DNA of 64,000 bases, taken from contig NC_089312.1 of the NCBI RefSeq assembly GCF_036669915.1, positions 10,112,938 to 10,176,937 on the forward strand. The letters run 5' to 3'. The stretch is from Pocillopora verrucosa. Its lineage: Eukaryota; Cnidaria; Anthozoa; Scleractinia; Pocilloporidae. The translations under genes were made by a program, and so were the position numbers. Every line of letters begins with the position of its first letter. Within the stretch, counting starts at the first letter, position 1. Shown here in pieces: positions 3,193 to 56,829 of the stretch. Under the pieces are notes generated by a model. The model was given only the letters and a program-made list of their open reading frames with translations. It did no database searches and was not told the origin of the DNA.

Positions 3193-5102
3193 TCAGGCTG
3201 CTTGAAAGAAGTGATACAATAGCCCCAAGAGTCCAAAGAGAAAGGAGAACCAGGTCAGGGAAGAGTTAAATCTAATTCTACCAATTTTGAAACCGCAGCC
3301 TCTGTCTTTAGCGTAAGCCAAAAACAGAAATATGTTGCGACGATCTTTGAACGGGTGTCCTTCATTCCAGTCATCAGATGTGGTGCAGTTAATTCTATCG
3401 TAGATTCCTTTGAAAACAAGAAAAAAAGGATCTGTTAGTACTGTGATCAAAATCCACCTGCGAAGGAGACAAAAAATGTTTAACTTAAGGTGGCAATCAC
3501 GGAATGACAGTTTTTTCAGCACGCTCCATCGCTGAGAACTCATCCATTAATCCCAAACAGTGCAGAAAGTTGAAAGCGCAACAAAACAAAATGGCGCACA
3601 GGTGTGGAGAAAGTAACAACGTTTTAAGTCAGAGTTTGAGAGAGAGGGAATGCTAAAAGAAAAACACCCAACAAAGGAAAAACAACTGGGTAAAAGTCTG
3701 GCTTACAATAACGGATATGAAAATATTAAGCGACAGGCAATTAAATCGCTCACGTGTCTCTACTCATGTGAACAGTGACTGCTTACGACTCTATTGAACT
3801 TTCTCCAGTTCCTACCTGCGCATGCGCTTGTGATCCTAGCAGCGTAAATACACGGGAGTATGAAAACGTAGAAGAAACAAACGAAGAGTAGGCAGGTGTA
3901 GACTTTGAACGCAGTGGACACACTATTTTTGTCTCCCGAGAGTTCCTCAGATGTTAACATAAAGTAAACAAGAATGCCAGCTCCGTATGTTAACCAATGC
4001 AACACAAACCATACTTTGTAGGCTGACACTGTGTTTAGGACAACTGTACACAAGTCCTCATGAATTCTAATGATGTCATCGAGAGTTCCATTCTCGACGT
4101 CCCGGATGAGTCTGAAAGTGTCTTTTGCTATTGTGCCTGAGGTAAAAAGAGAAAAAAAAGGTTTAGTAGATGTTGGTTTACGTTATTCTTTATGTCTGCA
4201 AGGAACAGTTTTTTAAGGAAGTTTAAGAAATATTAAGGTCTTTAAACGAACCAGAATCGCTAAAACTGTGTTCGATGTCTTTGCTATCTTGATGGCTCTA
4301 TCTTATTTCTAGGGGTGAAAAACGCGTAAGGAAGTAATTCGATAAGTTTTGGCAAAACGCGAAGTCTTCAATCAAGGAAATATGCATCATCATTCTTACC
4401 TAGAGAGGAAGAACTGACGGCAAAGGCGTGACAGGTGTTTACTGAAGCCCAGTGAGCCAACACAGCGGCCGTTAAGTTGTATACAATGCACAATTTGCTT
4501 AGATAAGTATTGTTATTGTTATATAACTTCAAATAAAGAAAAAGTGTCAGCCCGATAAAAAGCGAGGAAAGAAATCCAACGAATCCAATAAACAGCCACA
4601 GTATCGCCGTTTTGTCACAATCTTCGATCATTGATCGTGAAGGTGACACCAAAGCAGACTCTGTACCCCTGAATGTCGTCACACTTGTTATGAAAACGAC
4701 ATATGAAAGGAGTGCTGCAAAAGACAACAGTGAATAGCACGCCTTTTGAGTTCCTGGAAAGACCGTCAGTACTGTGAGGTTGGAATGCTTTTCATTGAAG
4801 TTGCAGTCGAAGTAGGGACAGTTCAGGTCAGAAGAGATTTGCAAGGATACTTGAACAGCACAAATTACAACAAATAGAAGACGAGGGATGTAGTTCCACG
4901 ACCGATGGCTCCACAAACCAAGCGAACAGAAGATAGCTTTGAAAATCATCAGAATGATTCGAGTGGATGTACTAACCAGCTGTGGCTCTCTTCCCCACCG
5001 AAAATACTGATACGTTTGCCCTCGTCGAACAGCCGGCCTCATTGTTTCAATGTTTTGATCATCAGGAACCCTTAGCACGAGATGCTCTTGCTCTGCCATC
5101 AT
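3193..5102 (-). CDS. Multi-pass membrane protein, paralog A (three exons, 412 aa)
   Basis: I do not recognise the family. Exons are complement 4400-5102, 3816-4136 and 3193-3407, with GT-AG borders; phases agree and the join gives 1239 nt including the stop. I chose the ATG ATG pair at 5102 because the dead paralog D begins with the same pair; the frame is also open to a GTG further upstream. About eight hydrophobic segments can be seen (roughly residues 48-64, 73-90, 122-141, 166-192, 204-228, 275-297, 310-335, 385-407). A short loop with C95-PYFD-C100 is shared by paralogs C and D. The N-terminus is polar. The 7-8 TM layout with a C-terminal TM resembles gustatory-receptor-like proteins, but I see no diagnostic motif, so that is only a suggestion. 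It is probably a plasma-membrane receptor or channel. Paralog C shares both intron positions and phases. Confidence 0.8.
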
Positions 5103-5719
5103 TGATCGTAAGCCATTGATTACATCGACTTCTAGCACAGACTGCGTGAATTATATCCGAAAGTTATCCTGATCGTGACTTTCAGGCTAGATTTTGTCAC
5201 CTGATAATTGTATTAAGCTGGTGCCACCGATCTATGATGTGATTTCAGTTTCCATAATCTCTGATCCTCTTTCGAGGTAACGCAAATTTTCTCGCAGAAT
5301 TAATGGTCACGCTTTTGAAGTAACGCTGGCATTGCCGAACCTGAAAGATCTTTTTCGCACATTGCAGGATAAGAAACTTCAGTGACTCTTGAACCTAAAT
5401 AATTAAATAGGTCTGAAAGAAAGCTAGTATCACGTGGTAAAAGGTTCAACTGAATTTCTCGTTGAGGATTTTCGGACAGTTGTTTTTCTTTTTGTATCAA
5501 ATAACAGCATTGCGTTACTTGAGTGCATTTTGAATCTAATTATCACATCTCTTGAAGTTTCTCGGAAAAACCTTTCTTCCGGTGCGTTAGAGTATAGCTA
5601 GAAACCGAAAGGAAAGGAAGTACACAAGATTTATTTTGATCAATTAAAGTTCTTTCAAAGTATTTTTTTAACTTCTTATGAAAAAAAATCATTTTTCTTG
5701 TTGTTTTAAAATGGTCAAC

Positions 5720-12350: not shown

Positions 12351-13580
12351 TAAAAGCAAGTACCAGCCATGGTCAGGTACATTCTCTTGCATTCCTGCTA
12401 CTCTCATCCGACTTGATGTTGTTACAAACTATATCATATAGGTGTCATCTGCAGTTTTTTGTTTTTTTGTTTTTTTTTTTTTAATATCTTTTGCAAGATA
12501 ACGAAGTGGTTTTGGGTCGTTTTAAGGCCGCCATAAACAGACGTTGAGTGTTCTCGTATCCCTTGTCGTGGACGAAGAATAATTTAATAAACGGGGACTC
12601 AAAATTACGACATTAGATACAAATCATAGTCTCAAGGTTTCCTACCGGATTTGAATGCATTTTTGAAATTTTGTACCTTCTAACACCTTCAGCGGGGGAA
12701 ATAATACGAGGAAAGCTCAGAAGATCTAAATTTAGAATATCTCAATTTCGACTGCTGACGGGGAATAACCAATGACTAAATTCAGCAATAACTTTTAAGG
12801 CGGATATTGAATGCGGCTTAAGCCTCCAAAAACTGATTATGCTATCAAAAGACCAGTCTCTTTAAATGAGAAGCAAGAAGTGCCCGTCATGCCAACCTGG
12901 GGTTAAAAACGTTGGACCTCTTCCGTAGCCGTAGAAATCCACATGGGTACCAAACGGATGACATCAGTTCTCATCAGTAATTCAGTTGGAGGCGGTTTTG
13001 GTTTCCAGCTGATAGAACTCGCACATTTGAAACTGAAAGAAAGAACAGGTGATTCCCCTTTTAAGATACAAGTCATTTTTGTCTTTCGCTGGGGAAGTCA
13101 AGTCAATAACATATTCCGTTTTCAAGCTCTCTGCATACATTGTCTGAAATTAACAGTTTTGCTCGAGCCTCTCCTTAAGTGGTCTCTTCTCGTCAATTTT
13201 AAAGTTAGAAAGTAAAAATTGTTAAATTTAGGAGCTTTTGCAAGGAATTACTCGGCCGTATTGATAGAGGATTTTTTTCTTTAGAGATCCAAGAAAGTGA
13301 AAGTTATCTCTAAAGGTGACTGAAGCTAATATTAGAACAGATTGAACTCCCCAGTACAGTTTTGGTTTTAGTCTCTTTGTAGGCGAACTAGCACCATGCT
13401 TTTGAGACAGAAAAAGAAATCTTTGAGATGAAAAACTGTTAACTCTTGGAGCCTTTGCCGGGAGTTACCTAACAGTAATCTATAAGGGAGGCTTTTTAAA
13501 AGTGAAAGTTGCCTTCTAAGGAAAAAAATCAGTAATTTTGGAATAAATCTAACGTAATATCAATATAAATCCCCTTTCAG

Positions 13581-16500
13581 GAGTATTTATACTGATGGTG
13601 CGCCTTAATCAACCTCAACGCTTAGTTAGTTGTCGACCGTCAGCAAGTAAGCTGATCATGGCAATTCCAGAGACAGCTTGGATCCATCTCCTTGATGAAA
13701 GAGCACCACATTTAATCGAGGAAGTCGCACCAACTAAGCTGCTACCCTATTTGAATTTACCAAAATGGGATAAAGAGAACATCGTTTGCGACGAACGAAA
13801 CCTGGGACCCGCTTACGCGACATCGACTCTTCTCGACAAATTGAAGAGGCGGAATGGATCAAAGGGCTGGAAGACATTTGACGCGCTCGTCAGAGCTCTT
13901 AGAAATATCGGAAATCAACAATCGGCACTGCTGCTTGACCCACACTTTAAAGGTAATAAATATACCATATGGAAATTAAAAGGCTATCATCTTAGAAGTG
14001 CAAAGTTGTCTATCAAATCACCTTTAAATGACACCGGCTCAAGATATTCCAACTAAATTGCAATATGCAAATCATCCTTCCAGTTCCTTCAGTTCCTTCT
14101 GCTTCAGAGGAAATTGAAGATGAAAACTGCTCTCGACTCGGAATTCTAGGTACAGCAGCAGGTATGTAAAAGATTTAATTAGGTTCACCTCTGATAAAAG
14201 TTACAAACCAATTTACAGTGAACCCCTTTATTGGTACAAAACTTCAAGTAAGTCGCTCTATGGTTAACTCGCACAAAGAGAACACTCCGTTGTACTAAGC
14301 TTTCATAGTAGACATGGTAATCTGTTTTAAAATACTCAGAAGAGGATTTTTTTTCCATTTTTTAACAATATAGAAATTGGCGTCAGAATACGTCTAGTGG
14401 ACGAAGAAACAAAAAATTATTGCGAGAAACTGGAGAACGAAATCTGGAGAAAGTTTCAAGACACCAGATCGGAAAGCACCCTCGAACTGCGTAATAAGTT
14501 GCATGAGGTAGGAAGTTCATAATTGTAAAACAAGATTTGAAAAGTTGACAAGGTACATGAGAGTTGTTAAGGAGTTTGATATCTTCGAAGCACTGATCGC
14601 CACTGAATCTGTTACGTTATTCTTATTAAATTAGGTGCCCTTAGAAATTTTCCTCGAGTTCAACAAGTTTCTGAAATAATTTTTAAGCAAACTGTGCATA
14701 AAATGTTTATTGCTAAGGGTTTACTTTGCACTCGTGAGTTATTGGGCAAAACTTTACCTTCTTATCTACCTGATAGACTTAAAGGGCTCACCACACTTCA
14801 AGATTAGTTTACTTCATTAATTTCATTAACGCACAGTTCAGACGCCGCACTCAGTCGGCCGAGCCGAATCTAATTCAACGAATTAAGTTCATGTGAAGTA
14901 CGGCGTCTGAATCAATTCGGAAGGACCGATTTAATTTAGATGGGTTCAGTCAATTAATCCCGCTTGGCTCTGCAGGGAAGAACGACTGTGGACCGGCTTT
15001 GATTCAGACGCCGTACTTCAACTGAGCCGAACCAAATGCATAAATTATTTTAATGTATTTTTCATGCCGTTTTTACGGTTACATGTTCGCTACTTACATG
15101 CCGAATTCGCTACTTACTTCATCCCATCATTTTATCGTTCTACCTCCACGATCTTTCCGAACCAACATCTTGTTTTGAAGAAATCTGCCTTACTCAGCCT
15201 GAAATGGTCACCATGTTTCAGCGTATTATGGTGGTTATCATCGAGCCTGCGCATCGCTCACAATGGAGTGAGCAGACGTAGAAAAACGACTATTAATGGC
15301 TATCCCCTCTAACCTTTGGCCTGGAAGAGATTTATTGATAACATCTTGTCACTGAGGGACATTTCTATGAAAGAAACTTACAATTTTATTGACTTCACCA
15401 ATACGTTCAACATTACAATCAGGTTTACTTGTGAAACGCAACTTCGCAACAATCACAAAAATAATTAAATGGTGGTTAAAAGTAAACTAGAAGTCAATCT
15501 GCAGAATTTTAACTGACTCCTAAAAGCAGCAATCATGCAGTTGGGAGTATAAATTACAGATATAGCTTGTGGTTTATGTTTAATAGAGAATTAAAACTGT
15601 GAATTGACAGAGGCAGCGAATTCGGTATTCGACGAGTACTCGACGAGTAGCGAAACCGGCGTAAAGCGTCGCTACCACTCGATGATGCATGACAAGAAGG
15701 AGAGTGAGTGCACATACGGTTATCACTTGTCTTCTTCAGGCTGCAAAATAGGCTAAGACGGTTTGTATATGCATTCTTCTTCTTCTTCTTCTTTTTTTTT
15801 TGGCACTGTTTTCCAGCATTTTTAGCAGAAGAAAGGCTCTTACGCGCCGATTGCTGCCGGAATCCATGGCATCCGTCGTGTTTACAATTGCATGCTAAAC
15901 CAATGGCCGAATATTAATTTTCTTCGATTAATTAATTTCGGCCGAATAAAGTTCGGCGTTTGAATCTCTTCAACCAGGATTAACTAATTTAGGTCGGTCT
16001 ATCGTTGAATTCGATTCGGCGCGGCTGAGGTACGGTGTCTGAACCGGGCCTAATGCAACAAATGATCCGCACCGAATTTTCTTACATAAATAAGCACCGC
16101 TATTAAACCATGTGTTGTATCTCACCAAGAAGTCTTCAATTTCCTTATTCTAGGATTTACCAGAAGGCGCAGCTTTCTCAGCGTTAATTCAAGAAACGAA
16201 AGATGAGGTGCTAGTTTGCAAACTTCGAGTATCTCAGAAGTCAGTCGCTGAGCAGATTTAGGAAGATTATGGTAATGGAAAGCTGAAGGCAGTTCTGAAA
16301 GAAAAATTGCTTCATGGAATAGGTGCTGATAACAACCATTTTAAAATGAGTATTCATATCATGGAGGAAGAATATGAACGGGCATATAAAACTTTGGCAG
16401 GTAAAATATATTTTCCATTCCTTTGGTCATTTCAATGAGAGTTTTGAAACGTTTGCTTGCTTTCTGGAACTTGCAGATGGTGTCATGAATTAAGTTGATA

Positions 16501-17140: not shown

Positions 17141-17789
17141 TCCAGTCAGTCAGAGGTTTTGGGGAAAGGATCTCTGTAGATCAAGGAGACAAGACGAGTA
17201 CTATTGGGAAGCTTGAATATTTCCATAATGCAAATAAACTAAAGCAGATTTCTTAAAAGTAAAGCAATATGAAATCTTCGCATAATGAAAATAAATGGAG
17301 AATGTTTCCTTCTTGTGTGATATATGAACCTCACAGCAGGTTTAAAGGTCGATTGAAACTATGCATGTCCGCTTTGTCACGCTATGAATTTAATGTCACG
17401 AAAATTCGGCCTGACAAAAGTTATTTGAATTAGCAGCCCTTTCTATGATTACAGTACAAAAACAATAACTGGACACTCAATGCTGTTTATGGCGTGTTTT
17501 TACAAGTACTGGCAAGTATGTGGTGCCGGACGTATAGTAAATGAGCATAGTTCACCTTTTCTTTCAGGGAAGACACAGAAGCGGTGACTGACTCGATACA
17601 CTTCCTTTGATCACTAATCCAACCTAGCCTTAGAGAGTAAGAAGGGAAGGGCTAGTGGACACTGATCAACCCAATTTTTCCCCTGTAGGTCAATTGTAAA
17701 ACCTTGGAGTTATCTTAAATAGCCCAGAGTTAATGACTCTTCTTTCAACACCAAATATCAAAACTTCACGAGGAACGACATAATTTAGT

Positions 17790-18132
17790 ACGTACAGCCA
17801 TGATGACGTGACGGACGAAATGCCCGTTACAGAACAAACTAGTCAACAGGTTGAAATAGTGCTGTCATTTATCTTGAAGACCAATAAGATACTTGTCATG
17901 AATGGTATATCCAGAGAGAGATCCTCGTGAAGCAGTTGTAAATGCCTTTCATCACAGAGGGTATGAAGACTGCAACTATGACGTAATAAAAATCCACATT
18001 AGGCCAGATTGCATCTATGTTATAAGTTACCCAGGTCCCAGCCCAACTCTTACAAAGGCGAATAAAACCAAAAACAGTAAAGTAACAGAGGTACCATCTG
18101 GGAACAGAGAGATTGCAAGGTTCCTCAACTGA
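17790..18132 (+). pseudogene. Fragment of an AlbA_2/GHKL gene (GHKL part)
   Basis: The predicted peptide (PREAVVNAFHHRGYEDCN, IKIHIRP, VISYPGPSPTLTK, PSGNREIARFLN) matches residues about 290-400 of the intact gene at 52.8-56.8 kb. The upstream match (SHDDVTDE, VLSFILKTNK) is in a different frame, so there is a shift at about 17900, and the frame stops at 18132 where the intact protein goes on for 300 residues. The AlbA_2 exon is absent. From about 18140 to 19240 I see nothing further that I can support. Confidence 0.85.
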
Positions 18133-19239
18133 ATCGAGTCGGGTATAATTTTAGTTCTTGCCCCTCTCAAGAATTAGTGAGAGGGAAGGGTAAAAGAATA
18201 GAAGGGCTGCACTTCGTGGTGCCCAGACTGGAGGTAACTGGTCGCCAATTCTATTATTTTTTTGCAAACGGGCCACAGTATTCTGATTCGCTTATAAATT
18301 CTACTGGGCCGTTGTCCTTATGTTCAAGCAATTTAGACTGCATGTCCGTCAAAAATTTCTTCACAAAGTTTAAGTCTATCATCGAAACTCTAACAGCTTC
18401 CTTCCGCATTCTGTTAGAAATGTATCATTAGACAGAAAATTAACTAAAGCAGGGCTGCAACTAGTGAAATTAGATGCATTGTAAGATAATACAGCGTCTA
18501 ATAGATTTTTATAATTGTTTCAGAAAAAACTATGAAAGATCTCCTTTCTAACTTAGTGGTGAAATCTGTCCAATCAATTTGTTTAGAAGAGGTTAGTACC
18601 CATATCCCCTCAATCCTGTCATTCTTTCAACAAGCTATTAATGTTGAAAAAAATAAAATATAATGTTCTCAGTTTTTATATACATTTTTTGATGTGGAAT
18701 TTCTATTCTAAAGCATAGTAAAAAGAACACGAGCTAGAAAGTTGTGTCTGTTACACGACGTAAGTTGGCCTTGGACTCACAGTGACCTTCATCACTTCTT
18801 AAAGTTTGGTTTCAGTTTTGTAAACTGAGCAGGCTCTTAGATTAAAAGCTGTAAGGAAATGTCATATTAGAAACCAGAATCAATTTTTATAGAACGCAAG
18901 ACTATTCCTCTTTAGGCATAGAAGATGAGGTGTAGGGGAGGGGTTTCTCTCTCTCTGTGGGACAATATCCAGTTTGATAAAACACGCTACACAGAGGTCA
19001 TGTCAGTAAATTGAAGTTACGTTTGGCGACCCGCCATAAAATGGCGAGCCGGATCACTGACATTGCATGCAGACGAAAAAGTAGAATTTGTTTCATATGG
19101 TAGTCTTTGCGTAACGTACAAGTGAATTAGATTAAGAACTTTATCATTGCTAAGACGGTGCATGAAGTACATAATCATTTTTACAATTTAATTGAATTTT
19201 TCCTTTCACGGAAGGAAAACTAATCGAGAGCTATCTAAA

Positions 19240-26989: not shown

Positions 26990-29900
26990 TTAAAAAAAGT
27001 GAAACAATAAACCTATCAGTCCAAAGAAAAAGGATAGCCAGGCCAATGAGGTGCTGAAGGTGATTCTACCGATTTTGAATCCACAACCACTGTCCTTAGC
27101 GTATGAAATGAAGAGAGCGATGTTTTGACGATCCCTGAATGGATGGCCATCCACGTTCCAGTTCGCAGATGTGGTGGAGTTGATTTTCTCGTACACTCCT
27201 TTAATGCAAAAGAAGAGTCTGTTAAGGTAAGCAATCTCTTTGCTGTCAATTACTTAGTCGAAATTACGGAACACATCTAACGTTGGAGCCATTTTGATTG
27301 TGTAAGTAGGGTGTGGATCAAGCTGAATATTAAAATACGAAACAGGCTTTTACAAACAGAATTCGTAAAATCCTTTATCTAAAAATTGTAACCTTCTTAA
27401 CAGCTTAGATAGCATAATTTCATCCGAACAACCAATTCCAAAGGTAAAATTTGATCATTTCAGATTCTTATTCACAGTGCTTGTCTGTTAAGAAAATTTC
27501 AAATAATTAGTTTTGATCGTTGTCTTGTGGCTTTCACGTCCTCAAAATTCCTGAAAATGAGCATACTTGCACATCTTCATTTTTCAAACATTTTGGGACT
27601 CGTAGAGTCGAATGTGTCATACATTAGGCAATTTTCGATTAGGTATCGAAAGAAATCTGGGATCTAATTGGTTTTTCTTTACTTTGCGCTATGATTGGTC
27701 TGTAAGACTTCCGCCACTCTCTCGACTTAGTCCTCCGTGTTTTCCCGCAGTTTGTTTGTTTTCACTCCGAGTTCTTATTGGCTACTTATGATATTTTCCT
27801 TTTTATTTGCTCGACCGTTTTGATTGCTTTCGTTTTTGTTTTACGACCCTCCATCGAAAAGCTCTCTGTCATAATAAACTTTCCCCTGCAGGGCGGCGCG
27901 GTTTACAATAAGAGTGAAAAGTGCAAAAGTATTCTTATGCATTTTAAAATAATTATCGTACTTCTGCACTTGCTTGTGATTCTTGCAGCGAAGATGCATG
28001 GAACAAGGAATAAATAGATATGGCAGACAAAGAATAAGCCAAGGTACACCAGGTTTATTATAGGAGTGCCATACTTGCTTCTGAAGAGTATTTCTTTAGA
28101 TATGTAAATTACAGACAGAACAACTCCTACTCCATAACTGACCCAGTGCACTACAAACCAGACACTGTAGGATGACACTGTGTTGAAAACAACTGTGCAG
28201 AGTCCCTGGTGTAATGTTATGATCTTGTCGAGGCTTCTATGTTGTTCTTCAATCTGTTCAATGTGCCTCAGCGTGTCCTCTGCATAAGTTCCTGAGAAAA
28301 ATTGAGAACAATTGCGATCATGAAGTGATTATAAAGATGCAAAAAGCACAAGGGTGGGGATGGTGATGATGACATGGAAGGCGATCATCACCGTGGTCAA
28401 GAAGGTTGTGGTGCTATTTTGAGCAGACGACGCGGGTGATGTTGGAAATGGTAGCGGTGATAGTGCTTTTCCTCCTTGAAACTGTTATGTGGTAGTGAAT
28501 TTTAAAATGCCAGCAATGATAATGTTGAAGCTGACGATAATAAGCAAATGTTGGATGTTGTTGAGCGTGATATCACGAATTATCATAACTGAGGTCTGAG
28601 TTTTGTGCTGAGGCTGAAGGCTGACGCAGATAACACAGACACGTGGCGCTTGTATATTAGGCAGACTTTGAATTCAACATAATAATGCAACATCTGCTGC
28701 AGATATTGGGTTATCACGTCAACTTCATCTGCCATTAAGCAATTATTGAATGAGGTAGAGTATGATATGATTAATAATCAACGCCGAGATCTGAGTTATC
28801 TGCCGAAGCCAAAGGTTGAGACTGATAACACTCATACGAGGTTTGATAATTCATGATATCATGCGAAAACCGGATTCAATAATTGTTTTACAATACATTT
28901 TTCAAACAATCTGCAGAAGAAAACACTACACAGGCGAGGGGCTTGGAAACTAGGAAGACTTTGAACACGAAATTAGTTTTGTGATAGGATAACTTGTTCT
29001 TGAAATTTCACACGTTATTGTATAACGACTGAATGCTTTCGACCAATCAGATTTTTCACAATAAATCTAATGTATAATAATAGGTTGTATTAGTAGTACA
29101 TGCAGTGGTGTAGGTGTATGGTTTATTGCAGCAATGAAAATGATGCTGTTGAAGTTACAAAGAGTATATAGTTCTGTTGGCACATTTAATATACTGGTGA
29201 TGGTCATAGTTTTGTGTTTAGGGTTCTGATACCTGCGGAGTTGATGGTGTCTCTGAAAGCAGTGAAAAAGGTGTGTCTGTAATGAAGTTAGATTAGCGTT
29301 TATGCCTCAGGTAGGCATTCCAGTGTATGTGGAAAGATATGAAACTTAAGATGGCGATAGCGATGACCCTGGTGACGAGAGCACCTATAGCCAGTGGTTT
29401 GTGAGGATGGTTATTGTGCTGGTAGTTCACGATATCGGTACTAATATCAAGTGTTGGAGGAGCTGATTAGTAAATAATTAGTAGAAGATGCTGGTGTAGG
29501 AAGTGGTTTCATTTAGTAGTCGTGGCAGTGCTGATGCAGATAAAGTGGTGATGGCTAAAAAAAATGGCTATGGTAAAGTTAGAAATGTTGGTGGCAATAG
29601 CCACTACAGCTGTGGTTCTTTTTAAACATGGCAGTGACTATGGAAGTTGAGGTGGGGATACTGTTGGTTCCAGCGTTTCATGTCAACGATTGGGATAGGC
29701 GAGGGGTAAATGTAGTGCTGTCTCCTTTGCCTAAGATGTGATAAGATTGGCTTGGTAATGATTATGATGATGATGTGATGAAAGTGATGTCCGTGATATA
29801 ATCCATGATGGGGATGATAATTGTGGCTTTGGTGGATATGTTTTTGCATATTGCTTATGTTGCTTAGGTTGATAATCTAAATATATATTTAGGAATTTAG

Positions 29901-31448
29901 AGTGAATCAAGATGTTCAGTAGTCTTGAGGCCAGGAATCTACAGATAAAAGTCTTAACCGCAAATAAATTGACTGAATGATATTTTGACTGTATAATGAG
30001 AACGAAAATAATGTGAACAGGAATTAAAGAGATCGTAGAAAAAAAAGCCTTATTAATTTGAGACTTTGACAGGATTTGAATTTTACGACCAGGTGCTGCT
30101 ATCAACTATCTTGAACGTCTATCATCTAGAAATTGACTGCTTGCCTGAAGGAAACCCAGAGTAAAGGGTAAAGAAAAAGAAAAAAACCGGGAGACTCCCC
30201 AGGCAGAGAGATGATGAAACTGGCGGAAAGATTGATCAATGAAAAAGAGCATCAACGTCAAAAAAAGAAAGTGATTAGCGGTGTCGTGACTGTTTTTTCT
30301 TTTTTGGAGTTGCGTGACTGATAACCTCATTTTGAAATTGTCAGCCTCGGTTCCAGTTACGTACCTCGTAAAAATATGTATCGGGGACGTTTTTTGGGAG
30401 AGCAGAAATTTTGAGTTGTGTTTTCCTTGTGATTTGAGGTTTCACTTTGTGAGGATTAAACCTTTAATTCAAAAACTAAAGCGAGTTATTTGGTGTCTCT
30501 GGAAACGGAAATTTGGTTCCCACAAGCGGTAAATTGTTTTTTTCTATCATTTGTCGGAGACTGGGCCCGAATGTAGTTGAGTTTTGATTGACACTGCACG
30601 CTTGTGTAGTCATACACGTCGCTTTTGAGGCAGTGCTTTTTTCCTAGAAAAGATGCGACAGAGAAATAAACGGTTGTGTTTATAGAAAGAAAACATGTGT
30701 TTATGACTTCGGGATACTAAACTTCCATTACCACGGAGGCATATTCCCGAAATCTTATTTTTTCAGAATATAACTTACCTACTGCAAAGGAACTAACGCC
30801 AAACACGTGACAAGTTGTTATTGCTGTCCACTGCGCGAAAAACTGGGCTCCTACTCCGGTGGCAAGAAAGGTGAAATAGGAATCTTTTGGCTGACTTATC
30901 CATATGATAGCGTAAAACACAGCCACCGAGCTTAGATACAACATTGTTATTGAAGTGAAAATAAGACGCAACCACCAGCAGTCCGTTCCTGTAAGGTCTT
31001 CCATCAATAAGTCAGACGGTGCGACCATAGCTGAGTTTTTTTGCTTTGCTACGATGAAACAACGGATAAAGAACAGGTAAGAAATCACTGCTGCCAATGA
31101 GCCTATCGTGTAAACAGCATTTGCCACACCACGATCATCCTTGTGATGAGAGGGCTTCTTAGAATCCGTTGAATTTTGTAAGAAACTGCAATCAAAACCG
31201 TGGCAACCTAACACGACATAGAAATCGTAAACAGCTTGATAAATACAAATTAGACCGACTAGTACTCGTGGGATGTAGTTCCAAGCCCGGTGACTCCATA
31301 ATCCAAGTGTACAGAAAGTGATTTTGACAATTTTCAATAAACATCGGTAGCATCCATTGACATCCTGCGGCTGTCTGTTACGCCGCAAGCCCAAATATGT
31401 TCGTTCATTTGGAAGAAGAGGCTGTTCTTCTCCCTCAGCTTCGGCCAT
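26990..31448 (-). CDS. Multi-pass membrane protein, paralog C (three exons, 402 aa)
   Basis: Exons are complement 30779-31448, 27962-28291 and 26990-27198; the sum is 1209 nt including the stop, with the same intron phases as paralog A. The start is the ATG of MAEAEGEEQPLLPNE; the frame is open further upstream, so a longer N-terminus cannot be excluded. The N-terminus carries an acidic EGEEQPLLP stretch that resembles a dileucine sorting signal. About eight hydrophobic segments follow. Shared with paralog A are GLWSHR.WNYIPR, a CHGFDC loop, TTCH.F.VSSF, LC..V.NTVS.Y.VWFV, CI.AARIT and the C-terminal GFKIGRI.F. The family is not recognised. The exon 2 donor (GAA/GTACGA) is not strong. Intron 1 holds a long low-complexity GAT/GTG-rich stretch. 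Paralog B is closest to this gene, whereas paralog D is closest to A. Confidence 0.8.
28330..29830. repeat. Low-complexity GAT/GGTG-rich stretch in intron 1 of paralog C
   Basis: The plus strand is rich in GATGATG, GGTGG and GTGATG words without a clean unit. The region 49600-50440 is rich in the complementary CATCAC/CACCA words. Open frames here are composition artefacts (histidine-rich on the minus strand). Confidence 0.6.
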
Positions 31449-32252
31449 GCTTATTGCTATGCTAAAATGAAATAAATGAGATGCTTCCTGAGACGTTAAC
31501 AAAATATGAAATGGAATTAATGGCGACACTTCTTCTGTATGTTTCCTTCGTTTACCTTCGGTTTCTAATTACGCAAACTCTAGAGCGCAGCAGACCGGAA
31601 AAACTCTTTTCCGAGAATGTTCCAAAGACTGATTTATGTCATTATTACATTTAGGGGTGCACTCACGTAACGCAATGATGTGACTTATGAATTAAAATCT
31701 AAGAACTTTTAATCGAATATATTTTCAAATTTACGGCACACTCTGAGTGTTTCTTCCGTGGTCAAGACCTTTCCGTCCTTCCTCTAGACTTTTATGTTGG
31801 TCTTTGGCTTCTGTTCAGGCTCCAAATAGAAGGAATACCATGTCACGTTGCGAAGACTAACTCTCATAATTAAATGTTCGTATGAACTTTTTCAATTATT
31901 TAGTTACTGAGATATTTGCAACAGCATTCGAATTCCAGACTTTGGCATTATACGATATAATTGTTCAGGTACGAAAACAAATTTTCAGCTACGTTGATGC
32001 AAACGTTACTTCGACAAGGACAAAACATTCATTCTGCTATAAAAAGTTGAGTTACCCTGAAAAAAGCTCATATGTTATGGAAACGGAAACCACGTCATGG
32101 ATCTGCGGCGTACTAAGATCAATTGTCAGGTTATAAAACTAATGCCGAAGGGATCCGAATAATTTCCAAATGTGATTCCCGCAGTCTGCGGTTAATAATG
32201 ATAAAGTTAAAAACGAACTAATTGTCAATGTAAGTTCAATAGCCTGTGATCT

Positions 32253-52811: not shown

Positions 52812-55800
52812 ATGGCTCGGTGTACTTCAAATTTGTTGATAAATGTGAACGATCTGTTGCGACTGCAAGGAGTAGAGAAACAAAGAGTTGAGTTTAAGGA
52901 AGCATGGCATGGAAAACGAGAGGGCGGCACGTATTGGCAAGTCGTTCACACAATTTCTGCCTACGCCAACGACTTCTTCAACGACAATGGCGGATACATT
53001 ATCATCGGGGTTGATGAGAAGGACAAGAAGGAAAGCTGGGAAGATTCTGACGATCGACAAATCAACTATCCTCCACTCGGCGTTCCAGCAAGGGAACTTG
53101 ATCGAATACAGAAGGAAATAAATGGAGCTTGCAGGGCTCAAATAAAGCCAGAGTATCGTCCTATAATCTCACCTGAAGTGATCGAGTGCTCCGAAGGAAT
53201 AACGAAGCATGTGCTGGTTATCTGGGCTATGGCTTCTGATAACAAGCCTCACACATGCAGAGAAAGCGAAAAAGGAATGGATCTTTATTATGTGAGGCAA
53301 GGAACAGAAACCAAGAAGGCGACTCCTGAACAAATCGAGGAACTATTGCGCCAAGGAAATAAGATTCCATTTGATGACAGGAGGGCAATTGACTATGGTA
53401 AGAAACTTAAGTATTTTTCATCTGTTACGTAAAGATAAAATAAAAACTTCAACATTTTTTAAGGCTTTTCTGAGTCCTCTTCAATTTGCATACTGAGATA
53501 GAAATGGGTGAGAAATACGTGACTGATCAATAATAACTACTCATTTGACCGCCAAAACCAGAACCTTTTGCGTAATATACCATTTTTTCACTTTCTACAA
53601 ACGCTTGAGGATTCCAAATCAAGATAAAAATATCTTCTAATAGAAATTGGTATTTTCCAAAGAGAAATATGGAAAAATATCGGACGGCAGAACGTTCGAA
53701 TTTCTTCACTTTCTAGAAGCACTTGAGGATTCTAAATAAAGGCAGATATTTCAAAGAGAAATATGGAGTTGTTTGAGGACCGTTTACGGCCGAGTCACTG
53801 AAAAGTTTCTAAGTGTTGAGCGCTTGAATGGCTTCGTACTCTGTATACAGGGTTGGCGAAAAACGTCAAGTTCGAAATTTTTGGCTGCTTGGAGGCGCTT
53901 GAGGATTGTAAATGAAGATTGAACATTTTCGTTTCAATATTTTTTGGATTTCGAAGAGAAATGTGGAAAAATATCAGACTGCCAAACGATAAGTTATTTT
54001 AAGACCGTGTCCGGCCGTGCCGGACGTTTAGTCACTTCGTTTGCGTATAAACCCCCCGATCAACAAACTAGTACACATTAAACATTGAAAACGTATTTAA
54101 TGAGGTGGCAAACTATTTATTACCTAACTTAGGTTTATACTTCCATCATGTGAGGGCCGAGCTTCGTGGTTGGAGCTGCAATAGCGCGGGGTTGTCGCAT
54201 TTACTAACGGTATTGCGTGTAATCACATAATATCATCAAAGACGAACGTGTGAATAAAGTATTCGGTAAAATTTCCGCACAGCCCCATACTACATTATGC
54301 ATTCAGTTCTTGGATAGAGAAAACAATGAATAAAACAATACATCGCCATTGGGAAAACAGATTTGTTTTACAATAGTATGGGGCTGTGCGGAAATTTTAC
54401 CAAGTATTCCAGAAGTGAAATATGTCTGTGAACTTGCAATTAGTAGTCTTGCAGCAAAACTTGCGTTGTAAAGATTAAAGTGACTGAAGTCTCGAGGTTT
54501 TTACGGTCTCACTTGGCGACTTTGCTCGAAAGCTTTCAGAAAGTCACGGAGAAATCCAGAATAATAGTAACAACAATCCAACTCTGCAGATTAACAAAAT
54601 GCATACCTCAGGTGGTATACAACAATGGCTCAAAATAATATTCTGCGTTTATTAAATTTCCGATTGCAAAATTCATCAAATTCAGACGCTCGATCCAAAT
54701 CTTTCTTCGCCTGCAGCGCCAAATTACATTATTTCCATTCCGATTTCACGCTTCGCCTCACAGTTGCTCACTAAAGAAATTAAATGCTCTTTAACGAGAT
54801 AATCATCGTTTACAATGTTTCAGTGGGAATTGTTAAACCGTGGAACGGCAGACCGCGGAACCTCCGGAACCCTATATTGTTTTTGAAAGAAGAGTAATGA
54901 AATAAAATGAAAACTAAAAAGAACTTAATATTTATATTGTTTGAAAGTTCGTTTTCAGGTGTAATGAACAGTACTTTAAAAGGAGAAATATGTTTTAACT
55001 GTCCTTGACGTCCAACTTTAACTGTGGCGACAGTTACCATACGAGGGCATCTAATGTCATAAGGAACACTCAGCAATCACCTTCAAATAAGCTGATTGAG
55101 GCTCATCTAATTTGAAAATCAAAAAAGGCTAGGGTGAAAAATATACAGCCCAAAATTATTCTGAAAACTTAAAAGAAGCTCGGCTCATAAATTAATTGTG
55201 TGTCAGTAGAGGTTTAGTGATCCGTTTTCTTACTTTTGAACAGGATGTGGGAAGAGGTTGTCCGAAGACGACATAGACTTCAGCCTTGTGCAGAAATTCT
55301 TGAAAGAAATTCAGTCTAAATTACAAGAGCACGCTGATGAGAAAGAGCCAGCATATTTTTACGACAAATTGAAACTATTGCGATATGTTGGAGACAAGAG
55401 AATTGGCGACCAACTTTACAAAGTCTGGGTGCCACGAAATGTGGCCCTTTTGCTCTTTAACCCATCACCAGACGAATTCTTTAGAGGGGCGAAAACAGAA
55501 ATTGCTATATATACTCATGACAATGAGACAGAAGAAAAGTGTATCACAGGACCAATAGATCAACAGATTCGAGAAGTATTATCTTTCATTTTGAAGACAA
55601 CTAAAGAGGAAGCTTGTCATGAATTTGTTGCCTATCCCGAGCGAGCACTTCGTGAAGCGGTCGTAAATGCCTTCCATCATAGAGGTTACGAAGACTACAA
55701 CTGCGATCCCATAAAAATCCATATCAAGCCAGAATACATTGATGTCATAAGCTATCCAGGTCCAAGTCCCACTCTTACAAAGGAGCACTTCAAAGAAGGA

Positions 55801-56829
55801 GGTGAAGTGCCGTGTGTTCCTTCAAGGAACAGGAGGATTGCAGAGTTCCTGAAAGAAAAGAAACTGGCTGAGGCACGATTCACGGGAGTGAAGACTATCT
55901 TCAAGTCTATGAAACAGAACAGAAACCCCAAGCCAGCCTTTGACTTTACTTCAGAACAATTTCGCGTTCGCCTTCCTGGCCATCCCAAGTACATAGCTTA
56001 CTCAGTTATTCGAAAAGTCGACAATCTGTGTGCTAAGGGTGACAAACAGGATGCAGTAAATATCCTCAAGGATTTTCTTGATGAGAATCTTTCCACGTGT
56101 CCAGACATGATTATTCGCAAATTGCTCGAGTTGTTTGACAATGACCAAACTCATCCCGACGTTCAACCATACCAAAAGTTTATTTCTGAAAAGTTACAGC
56201 GAACCAGTCCACTGATTACAGAGCTTTGCAAATGGTGTGTCAGTGAAGAAATGCCAGACATTTCCATCGGAGTCGAAATTGTGAATAAACTAGCGAAAGA
56301 AGGTGCAACCAGTGATGATCTCGATTCTGTTATCAGAAAGGCCGCTGATTTGTGCCAAAGGCGAAGCGATAATAGAGAACAAGTGTTAGAGGCTGCACAA
56401 AATGCTCACAAGCTGTTTGAGGCAATGGGTGCCGATATAACTCAAACGAACGCCTTTGCTGCTTTTCAGTTCGCATGTTGCAAATTCACACTGTACGTGA
56501 AGAAATGCCGTAGCGAACGACAAAGGAAAGATCTGATATGTTATCTCAAAGAAGCTGAGGATTACGTCCATAAGGCAAAACAGCTTACTCGTGAAGAGTA
56601 CAAACATCACTTAGCAAATCAATATCGACAACTTGGCTACATTCACTCGCAACTCTTTTTGATCCAAAAGTCTACGGTGGAACGGATCAAAAATTTCTAC
56701 GACAAGGCTAGACATTACAACTCTGAAATCAAAATTAGCAATATCTTCATTCCAGCGGAGCTCCGTTCATTTTACATGCCCTTAGGAAGTCCAACAAGAG
56801 AAATTAACAGTTTTGATCCTATTAAGTAA
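52812..56829 (+). CDS. AlbA_2 + GHKL-type ATPase protein with helical C-terminus (723 aa, two exons)
   Basis: Exons 52812-53397 and 55244-56829 join as GAC TAT G/GA TGT. Residues about 15-190 form a Schlafen-type AlbA_2 domain (VEFKEAW at 26-32, GGYIIIGVDEK at 60-70, YYVRQGTETKKATPEQI near its end), a nucleic-acid-binding fold. Residues about 205-450 match the domain that follows AlbA_2 in bacterial COG2865 proteins (HATPase_c_4, GHKL type): YPERALREAVVNAFHHR at 326-342 (N-box helix), ISYPGP at 374-379, then PSRNRRIAEFL, and a TG in RFTGVKTIF. Residues 460-700 are helical with TPR-like spacing (AAQNAHKLFEAMG, YRQLGYIHSQ). There is no helicase or membrane part, unlike long vertebrate Schlafens. 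It is probably a cytosolic or nuclear nucleic-acid-binding regulator; substrate unknown. An upstream exon is possible, since an acceptor (CTTTAG) lies 20 nt before the ATG. Confidence 0.85.
53560..53960 (+). repeat. Degenerate tandem repeats in the AlbA_2 gene intron
   Basis: Three units share an A/GGCGCTTGAGGATT-like start (about 53603, 53711, 53890) followed by AAAGAGAAATATGG-like words (about 53659, 53755, 53957) and an AAAAATATC.GAC word in two of them. Spacing is 100-180 bp with strong divergence. Confidence 0.65.
54265..54401. mobile_element. MITE with perfect 27-bp terminal inverted repeats and 8-bp target duplication
   Basis: Positions 54265-54291 (starting GGTAAAATTTCCGCACAGCC) are the exact reverse complement of 54375-54401. 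AAGTATTC flanks both ends (54257-54264 and 54402-54409). An 8-bp duplication suggests the hAT, P or Merlin group; the terminal bases do not settle which. The element is 137 bp, without coding capacity, and lies in the intron of the AlbA_2 gene. Perfect arms indicate a young insertion. Confidence 0.9.

What the first reader, a model, noticed from the sequence alone, without database searches (positions are those of the whole stretch)
52812..56829. Animal gene with a bacterial-style AlbA_2 + GHKL-ATPase pair and a helical repeat tail
The first exon gives a Schlafen-type AlbA_2 domain and the second a COG2865-type GHKL part plus about 240 helical residues. In animals AlbA_2 is known mainly from Schlafens, which lack this second domain. 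The pair is a bacterial arrangement often met near defence genes. The helical tail could act as a sensor or oligomerisation arm. Two dead copies lie in the same window, so the family duplicates and decays fast, as immune genes do. Domain identification is established knowledge; the immune role is inference.
Basis: partly seen in the sequence, partly recalled or inferred. Interest (0 to 1): 0.8.

Follow-up and report, generated by a model that had tools for sequence, protein, structure and literature searches.

The report
Bacterial-type Schlafen gene in corals
Corals and their relatives carry a multi-copy gene family that looks borrowed long ago from bacteria, joining an RNA-cutting type of domain, an ATPase-like domain and a helical arm; some related bacterial genes sit beside anti-phage-type genes, so it may be a coral immune gene, but this is untested.

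Summary
A two-exon gene (52812-53397, 55244-56829; 723 aa) encodes SLFN_AlbA_2 (E=8.6e-13), HATPase_c_4 (E=5.7e-10) and a ~270-residue helical tail. Two broken copies lie in the window; both are nearer to other subfamilies. The tail is not an animal addition: bacteria of 13 phyla encode proteins of this length and order, 22 of 28 bacterial-type rows scanned show TPR in the tail, and anthozoan and bacterial profiles align nearly to the tail's end. Named animal hits are anthozoans only: Stylophora, Dendronephthya, Paramuricea. Six full-length anthozoan-type rows form one clade (100/100), and protein starts imply one shared intron at the AlbA_2/GHKL border, so one bacterial acquisition before the hexacoral/octocoral split is the best reading. 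Nesting inside the bacterial family is favoured, not forced (AU p=0.09). Schlafen RNase carboxylates align with E22/E27/E69; the GHKL N-box is kept, the usual G1 aspartate is not. In 4 of 17 bacterial loci examined the gene adjoins methylase, restriction or helicase genes. Proposed function, inferred: a Schlafen-type RNase gated by its GHKL and TPR parts, in antiviral or anti-invader defence.

The parts
52812..53397 (+). Exon 1: start codon, SLFN_AlbA_2 domain (residues 22-170) with carboxylates E22, E27, E69
53398..55243 (+). Intron, 1846 bp, GT-AG, phase 1, at the AlbA_2/GHKL border; the same border is implied by protein starts of hexacoral- and octocoral-type copies
55244..56829 (+). Exon 2: GHKL part (HATPase_c_4, residues 351-439; N-box E333/N337) and helical TPR-derived tail (about residues 446-715), stop codon
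21667..23809 (-). Broken copy of the family, nearest to Stylophora P0022; both exons and a roughly 120-bp intron at the same place and phase; stops and a frame change
17730..18379 (.). Rearranged fragment of a family copy, pieces on both strands (17730-18126 +, 18379-18115 -), nearest to P0011

Best explanation
An anthozoan gene family acquired once from bacteria as a complete AlbA_2-GHKL-TPR protein and kept, duplicated and diversified since before hexacorals and octocorals parted. Proposed working: the AlbA_2 module is a Schlafen-type RNase part, of which Pfam shows one per chain, so that two chains would have to pair to be active; the GHKL domain (ATP- or ligand-dependent) drives or locks pairing; the fast-changing TPR tail senses a trigger or partner. 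On activation it cuts structured RNA, most likely tRNA, and halts translation in infected cells. Shown: gene structure, domains, bacterial kinship, colinear tail, single clade, aligned carboxylates. Strongly implied: a shared intron. Inferred: pairing, RNase activity, ATP gating, sensing by the tail, antiviral role.
Against: No expression, biochemical or infection data. The GHKL G1 box lacks the canonical Asp (SYPGP, each letter in 173-176 of 177 non-anthozoan rows), so ATP binding is uncertain. The third carboxylate is E, not D. Of 17 bacterial loci examined, 6 adjoin metabolic or transport genes, 6 gave no PADLOC match and 1 (L059) only a partial one; no conserved partner gene was found. The nested position inside bacteria is not forced: AU p = 0.0939.
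Confidence: 0.5

Rival explanations
1. Same bacterial origin, but the protein is a nucleic-acid-binding regulator or scaffold without nuclease activity, co-opted for stress or development.
For: Several bacterial AlbA_2-GHKL proteins are annotated as RNA-binding domain-containing, ATP-binding or RecG-like; SLFN5 and mSLFN1 keep the key catalytic residues yet did not cleave the tRNAs given (PMC5862951, passages); the G1 Asp is missing.
Against: All three carboxylates are kept in all 8 cnidarian rows across two subclasses.
Confidence: 0.3
2. A young, decaying insertion or selfish family with no lasting host function.
For: Two broken copies in 64 kb; several clusters share one contig length, e.g. 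three at 530325 and three at 634445 bases.
Against: Intact frame here; key residues conserved, and one clade with an apparently shared intron in hexacorals and octocorals.
Confidence: 0.07
3. Vertically inherited ancient animal gene related to vertebrate Schlafens, lost elsewhere; bacterial resemblance is deep homology.
For: AlbA_2 is shared with Schlafens and SAMD9; nesting inside bacteria is not forced.
Against: Bacterial kin match all three modules in order while Schlafen chains match about 50-70 residues at E 0.004 or worse; no other named animals among the 120 rows listed by each of two searches.
Confidence: 0.05
4. Bacterial contamination or mis-assembly.
For: None found beyond the bacterial similarity.
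Against: Intron in the gene and in the broken copy, host-like composition (exons 45 and 42% GC, window 38%), a named animal relative on a contig of 1.9 Mb.
Confidence: 0.01

Closest known systems
Bacterial AlbA_2-HATPase_c_4-TPR proteins (e.g. Magnetococcales P0094/L001, Chondromyces P0095, Polyangium P0183), annotated 'RecG-related' or 'RNA-binding domain-containing'
   Same: All three modules in the same order, about 650-690 aa, same invariant residues
   Different: Animal copies are split by a phase-1 intron, lack a short stretch before the N-box, have a very diverged tail and exist as a gene family
BREX-linked bacterial Schlafen RNase + minimal histidine kinase + wHTH (PMC12839542, passages only; cites Taboada 2025 preprint, not held)
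   Same: Schlafen domain followed by a histidine-kinase-like domain, in defence loci
   Different: C-terminal wHTH there, TPR-type tail here; the words TPR and tetratricopeptide do not occur in that paper's main text
Vertebrate Schlafens (SLFN13, SLFN11, SLFN14)
   Same: AlbA_2 similarity and aligned carboxylates
   Different: Schlafen13 has a pseudo-dimeric N-terminal domain with two lobes (passages); here Pfam shows one AlbA_2 stretch, followed by a GHKL domain
SAMD9/SAMD9L tRNase domain (9o0d, 7ksp)
   Different: Different partner domains (recalled)
DIP2311, PDB 3lmm
   Different: The match stops before the tail; rmsd 16.4 means the domain arrangement may differ

Membership tests
Bacterial AlbA_2 + HATPase_c_4 (COG2865-type) proteins | PF04326 above cut-off | tested here: met
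   49.3 bits against 25.3
Bacterial AlbA_2 + HATPase_c_4 (COG2865-type) proteins | PF13749 above cut-off, C-terminal to AlbA_2 | tested here: met
   39.5 bits against 26, residues 351-439
Bacterial AlbA_2 + HATPase_c_4 (COG2865-type) proteins | Match to the COG2865 model itself | not testable with these tools
   No COG library on hand; the COG name is recalled
AlbA_2-GHKL-TPR subfamily | Tail colinear with the bacterial tail | tested here: met
   hhalign probability 100, columns run to residue 705 of 735 against 643 of 657
AlbA_2-GHKL-TPR subfamily | TPR signature in the anthozoan tail itself | tested here: inconclusive
Schlafen (vertebrate type) | Carboxylate triad of the RNase | tested here: met
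   E22/E27/E69 aligned with E205/E210/D248 (chain 5yd0 carries a constant offset of 13 by my count); the third is E
Schlafen (vertebrate type) | Two AlbA lobes in one chain (lobes as in PMC5862951; the AlbA naming of both is recalled) | tested here: inconclusive
   One PF04326 stretch only; whether the segment between residues 196 and 330 forms a second lobe was not tested apart
Schlafen (vertebrate type) | Closest kin by sequence | tested here: not met
   Exon 1: bacterial 2kyy E=0.00038, best Schlafen 0.077; mixed profile 2.4e-12 against 0.004; no Schlafen tree built
GHKL ATPase | N-box E...N | tested here: met
   7 of 8 cnidarian rows, the eighth a gap; 177 of 177 non-anthozoan rows
GHKL ATPase | G1 box DxGxG (recalled motif) | tested here: not met
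   SYPGP instead, nearly invariant in the family; nucleotide binding therefore open
Antiphage/antiviral defence protein | Protection of cells from virus | not testable with these tools
   No experiment; bacterial context only

The most novel reading that the evidence does not exclude
Anthozoans hold a lineage-specific innate immune family built from a whole bacterial antiphage Schlafen: an RNase whose TPR tail diversifies across many paralogs to recognise different invaders or viral proteins, a further route, apart from vertebrate Schlafens and SAMD9, by which AlbA_2 tRNases entered animal immunity.
Probability: 0.28. Interest if true: 0.82.

Novelty: new variant of a known kind. Interest (0 to 1): 0.62.

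Why it matters
It would be an ancient whole-protein acquisition of a bacterial Schlafen-GHKL-TPR gene by animals, apart from vertebrate Schlafens, kept and multiplied in corals. It would make testable whether bacterial antiphage RNases were recruited more than once into animal immunity, and it offers a candidate antiviral gene family in reef-builders.

Tried and rejected
Considered and rejected: contamination (introns); vertebrate-type Schlafen; a fixed bacterial operon partner (455 neighbours within four genes of the family gene in 75 loci; the commonest neighbour cluster is in 7 loci and looks sensor-like by eye); single-sequence PDB search of the joined protein (nothing better than E=0.12); NCBIfam (best E 0.079). 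PADLOC scan of neighbours: near genes (109 scanned of 185 eligible) matched 202 models, far genes (124 of 191) 114 models; the commonest are mad2 (5 members) and mad8 (4) near, mad3 (2) far. Models overlap and one protein hits many, so this is weak support only. Of 17 loci whose neighbours I then annotated, chosen by eye for large adjacent genes, 4 (L046, L053, L054, L065) showed methylase, restriction or helicase partners; L059 matched MkoA/MkoC over part of its length; 6 (L003, L033, L038, L041, L068, L073) had metabolic or transport genes (the L033 molybdopterin-type gene also hit viperin models weakly); 6 (L010, L016, L031, L050, L057, L071) matched no PADLOC model. PADLOC hits of the family itself, four proteins scanned, are to Argonaute-linked models over the AlbA_2/GHKL region. 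Forcing all 50 ingroup bacterial-type rows into one clade is not rejected (p 0.0939). In the quick tree the place of the anthozoan clade was unresolved. In the FastTree of second-exon proteins the set that I labelled hexacoral by similarity needed two changes, so it was not one side of a branch; P0071 was a long odd row, which the tool warned of joining to bacteria. dN/dS was not computed: no DNA of other coral copies. Papers: searches for the domain pair, Schlafen with invertebrate, cnidarian, coral and Nematostella, bacterial Schlafen, and antiphage transfer with cnidaria listed no paper whose title or abstract shows this family in anthozoans; I looked into only a few of them, and the library lacks most subscription journals, so absence in print is not shown.

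Full report
The gene. The window holds a two-exon gene at 52812-53397 and 55244-56829 on the + strand, with a GT-AG phase-1 intron of 1846 bp and an open frame of 723 residues. Pfam finds SLFN_AlbA_2 (residues 22-170, E=8.6e-13) and HATPase_c_4 (351-439, E=5.7e-10), both above the curated cut-offs. The rest, from about residue 446, is helical in the model of a relative.

Relatives. A search of 5.8 billion proteins lists first coral-type sequences (best 1175 bits, 98% identity over 72% of the query) and then bacterial or bacterial-type proteins with both Pfam domains: 27 in the 120 rows shown, 24 of them 33-36% identical over 88-94% of the query and 3 at 40-41% over 63-65%. The named animal hits are Stylophora pistillata (three gene models, AWC38_SpisGene11647 to 11649, all on a contig of 530325 bases), Dendronephthya gigantea LOC114526934 and Paramuricea clavata; NCBI taxonomy places them in Hexacorallia and Octocorallia. 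A second search, from P0047 (unnamed, 70% identical to the Dendronephthya protein), listed 21 octocoral-type clusters, itself included, and then bacterial-type rows mixed with coral-type ones; no other named animal is among the 120 rows shown. Of 112 anthozoan-type clusters only 5 are named; the rest I assigned by similarity. The database covers eukaryotes unevenly, so absence elsewhere is not proved.

The tail is bacterial too. TPR_19 is found in 22 of 28 bacterial-type rows at E 0.001 or better; five anthozoan-type proteins and the window protein show no TPR hit. A profile-profile alignment of 31 anthozoan-type against 28 bacterial-type rows runs in order from the GHKL part to residue 705 of 735 (probability 100, 33% identity over 456 columns). 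So the three parts came over as a unit. The tail is the least conserved part: window against P0045, 54% identity in AlbA_2, 44% in GHKL, 27% in the tail.

One acquisition. A scan of genome contigs found 184 relatives, 80 kept. The tree labels 14 bacterial phyla, many from metagenome bins; 13 of them include a protein of tail-bearing length, while the single Actinomycetota row has 434 aa. In a careful tree of the AlbA_2+GHKL core (61 rows, 418 columns) the six full-length anthozoan-type rows (window, two Stylophora, one Dendronephthya, two unnamed) form one clade (100/100), octocoral-type beside hexacoral-type, inside a bacterial-type family rooted on three plasmid and two viral-contig rows. 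One bacterial row (Saprospiraceae L073) branches outside them (97/90), but a tree with all 50 ingroup bacterial-type rows as one clade is not rejected (p=0.0939). The bacterial source rests mainly on the breadth of bacterial kin and on the outgroups. Of the 112 clusters, 105 carry only PF13749 (one, P0020, reaches back to residue 128 of the query). Those with residues upstream of the motif SGKxLSEDDID (hexacoral type, e.g. P0015, P0031) or SGKxIxxxAI (octocoral type: P0122, P0123, P0130, P0131, P0138) read into unrelated, intron-like residues at the same point. This was read from protein starts, not from DNA. The broken copy at 23809-21667 has an intron of about 120 bp at the same place and phase. 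A shared intron speaks for one ancestral, spliced gene. P0003 and P0047 read through both exons on contigs of 2.3 and 2.6 kb, which suggests spliced transcripts (inference; the source type was not shown).

The dead copies. The copy at 23809-21667 matches P0022 best over its length (1079 bits summed, window gene 646) and is up to 90% identical to cluster P0061; the fragment at 17730-18379 matches P0011 best (260, window gene 135). Both are remains of other family branches.

Active sites. Schlafen13 needs E205, E210 and D248 (PMC5862951, passages). In the profile alignment these fall on E22, E27 and E69 of the window protein, taking a constant offset of 13 in the chain of 5yd0 (my count). E22, E27 and E69 are present in 8 of 8 cnidarian rows and in 173, 173 and 160 of 177 non-anthozoan rows. 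The GHKL N-box glutamate and asparagine are kept in every row that has letters there, but the usual G1 aspartate (recalled motif) is not: SYPGP stands there instead. Nucleotide binding is plausible and unproven.

Context in bacteria. Of 75 loci analysed with my own gene caller, 44 have a same-strand neighbour within 120 bp. Among 17 loci whose large neighbours I annotated, four lie in methylase, restriction or helicase settings: L046 (DUF1156-type methylase upstream, PLD-helicase downstream), L065 (methylase-like gene, small gene, then after the family gene a BrxH/DrmD-like helicase), L053 (type IIG restriction-methylase, small gene), L054 (N6 methylase with HsdR-like part). One more (L059) has a partial match to MkoA/MkoC, six adjoin metabolic or transport genes, and six gave no PADLOC match. 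The outgroup L085 lies before SNF2 and N6-methylase genes. [quoted passage not shown] the preprint is not held).

Mechanism. Schlafen13 is described as pseudo-dimeric (passages). Pfam shows one AlbA_2 per chain here, so an active RNase may need two chains; whether another part of the chain forms a second lobe was not tested. GHKL domains often pair when they bind ATP (recalled). The simplest working model is a ligand-gated dimer whose TPR tail holds or senses the trigger. Every step past the aligned residues is inference.

Verdict. It is a new, animal-borne variant of a known bacterial kind. The immune role is likely enough to test and is not shown.

Noticed in passing
window 13553-14056 (+): ORF with a CARD_2 caspase-recruitment domain (PF16739, E=1.6e-10), another immunity-type domain about 39 kb from the gene.
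   Followed up: partly
window 3760-5150 and 27903-31568 (-): Two pairs of multi-membrane-helix ORFs that look alike by eye, perhaps tandem chemoreceptor-type genes; only a sub-threshold 7tm_7 match in one (E=0.0041).
   Followed up: partly
window about 54265-54401: Inside the intron, an inverted repeat of 28 bases about 80 bases apart, like a small MITE; seen by eye.
   Followed up: no
L066, L068, L069, L070, L071, L075, L080: Bacterial relatives of about 430 aa that end after the GHKL part; those in the trees lie in at least two places among tail-bearing ones, suggesting repeated tail loss, or broken frames.
   Followed up: partly
L046, L053, L054, L065: The tail-bearing bacterial gene lies beside methylase, restriction or helicase genes, a possible uncatalogued accessory of such systems.
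   Followed up: partly
PDB 9ylu/9ylv/9ylx (CbCash): A deposited protein of 297 aa matches the AlbA_2 profile (E=5.2e-8), 28 chains in three entries; what it does was not found.
   Followed up: no
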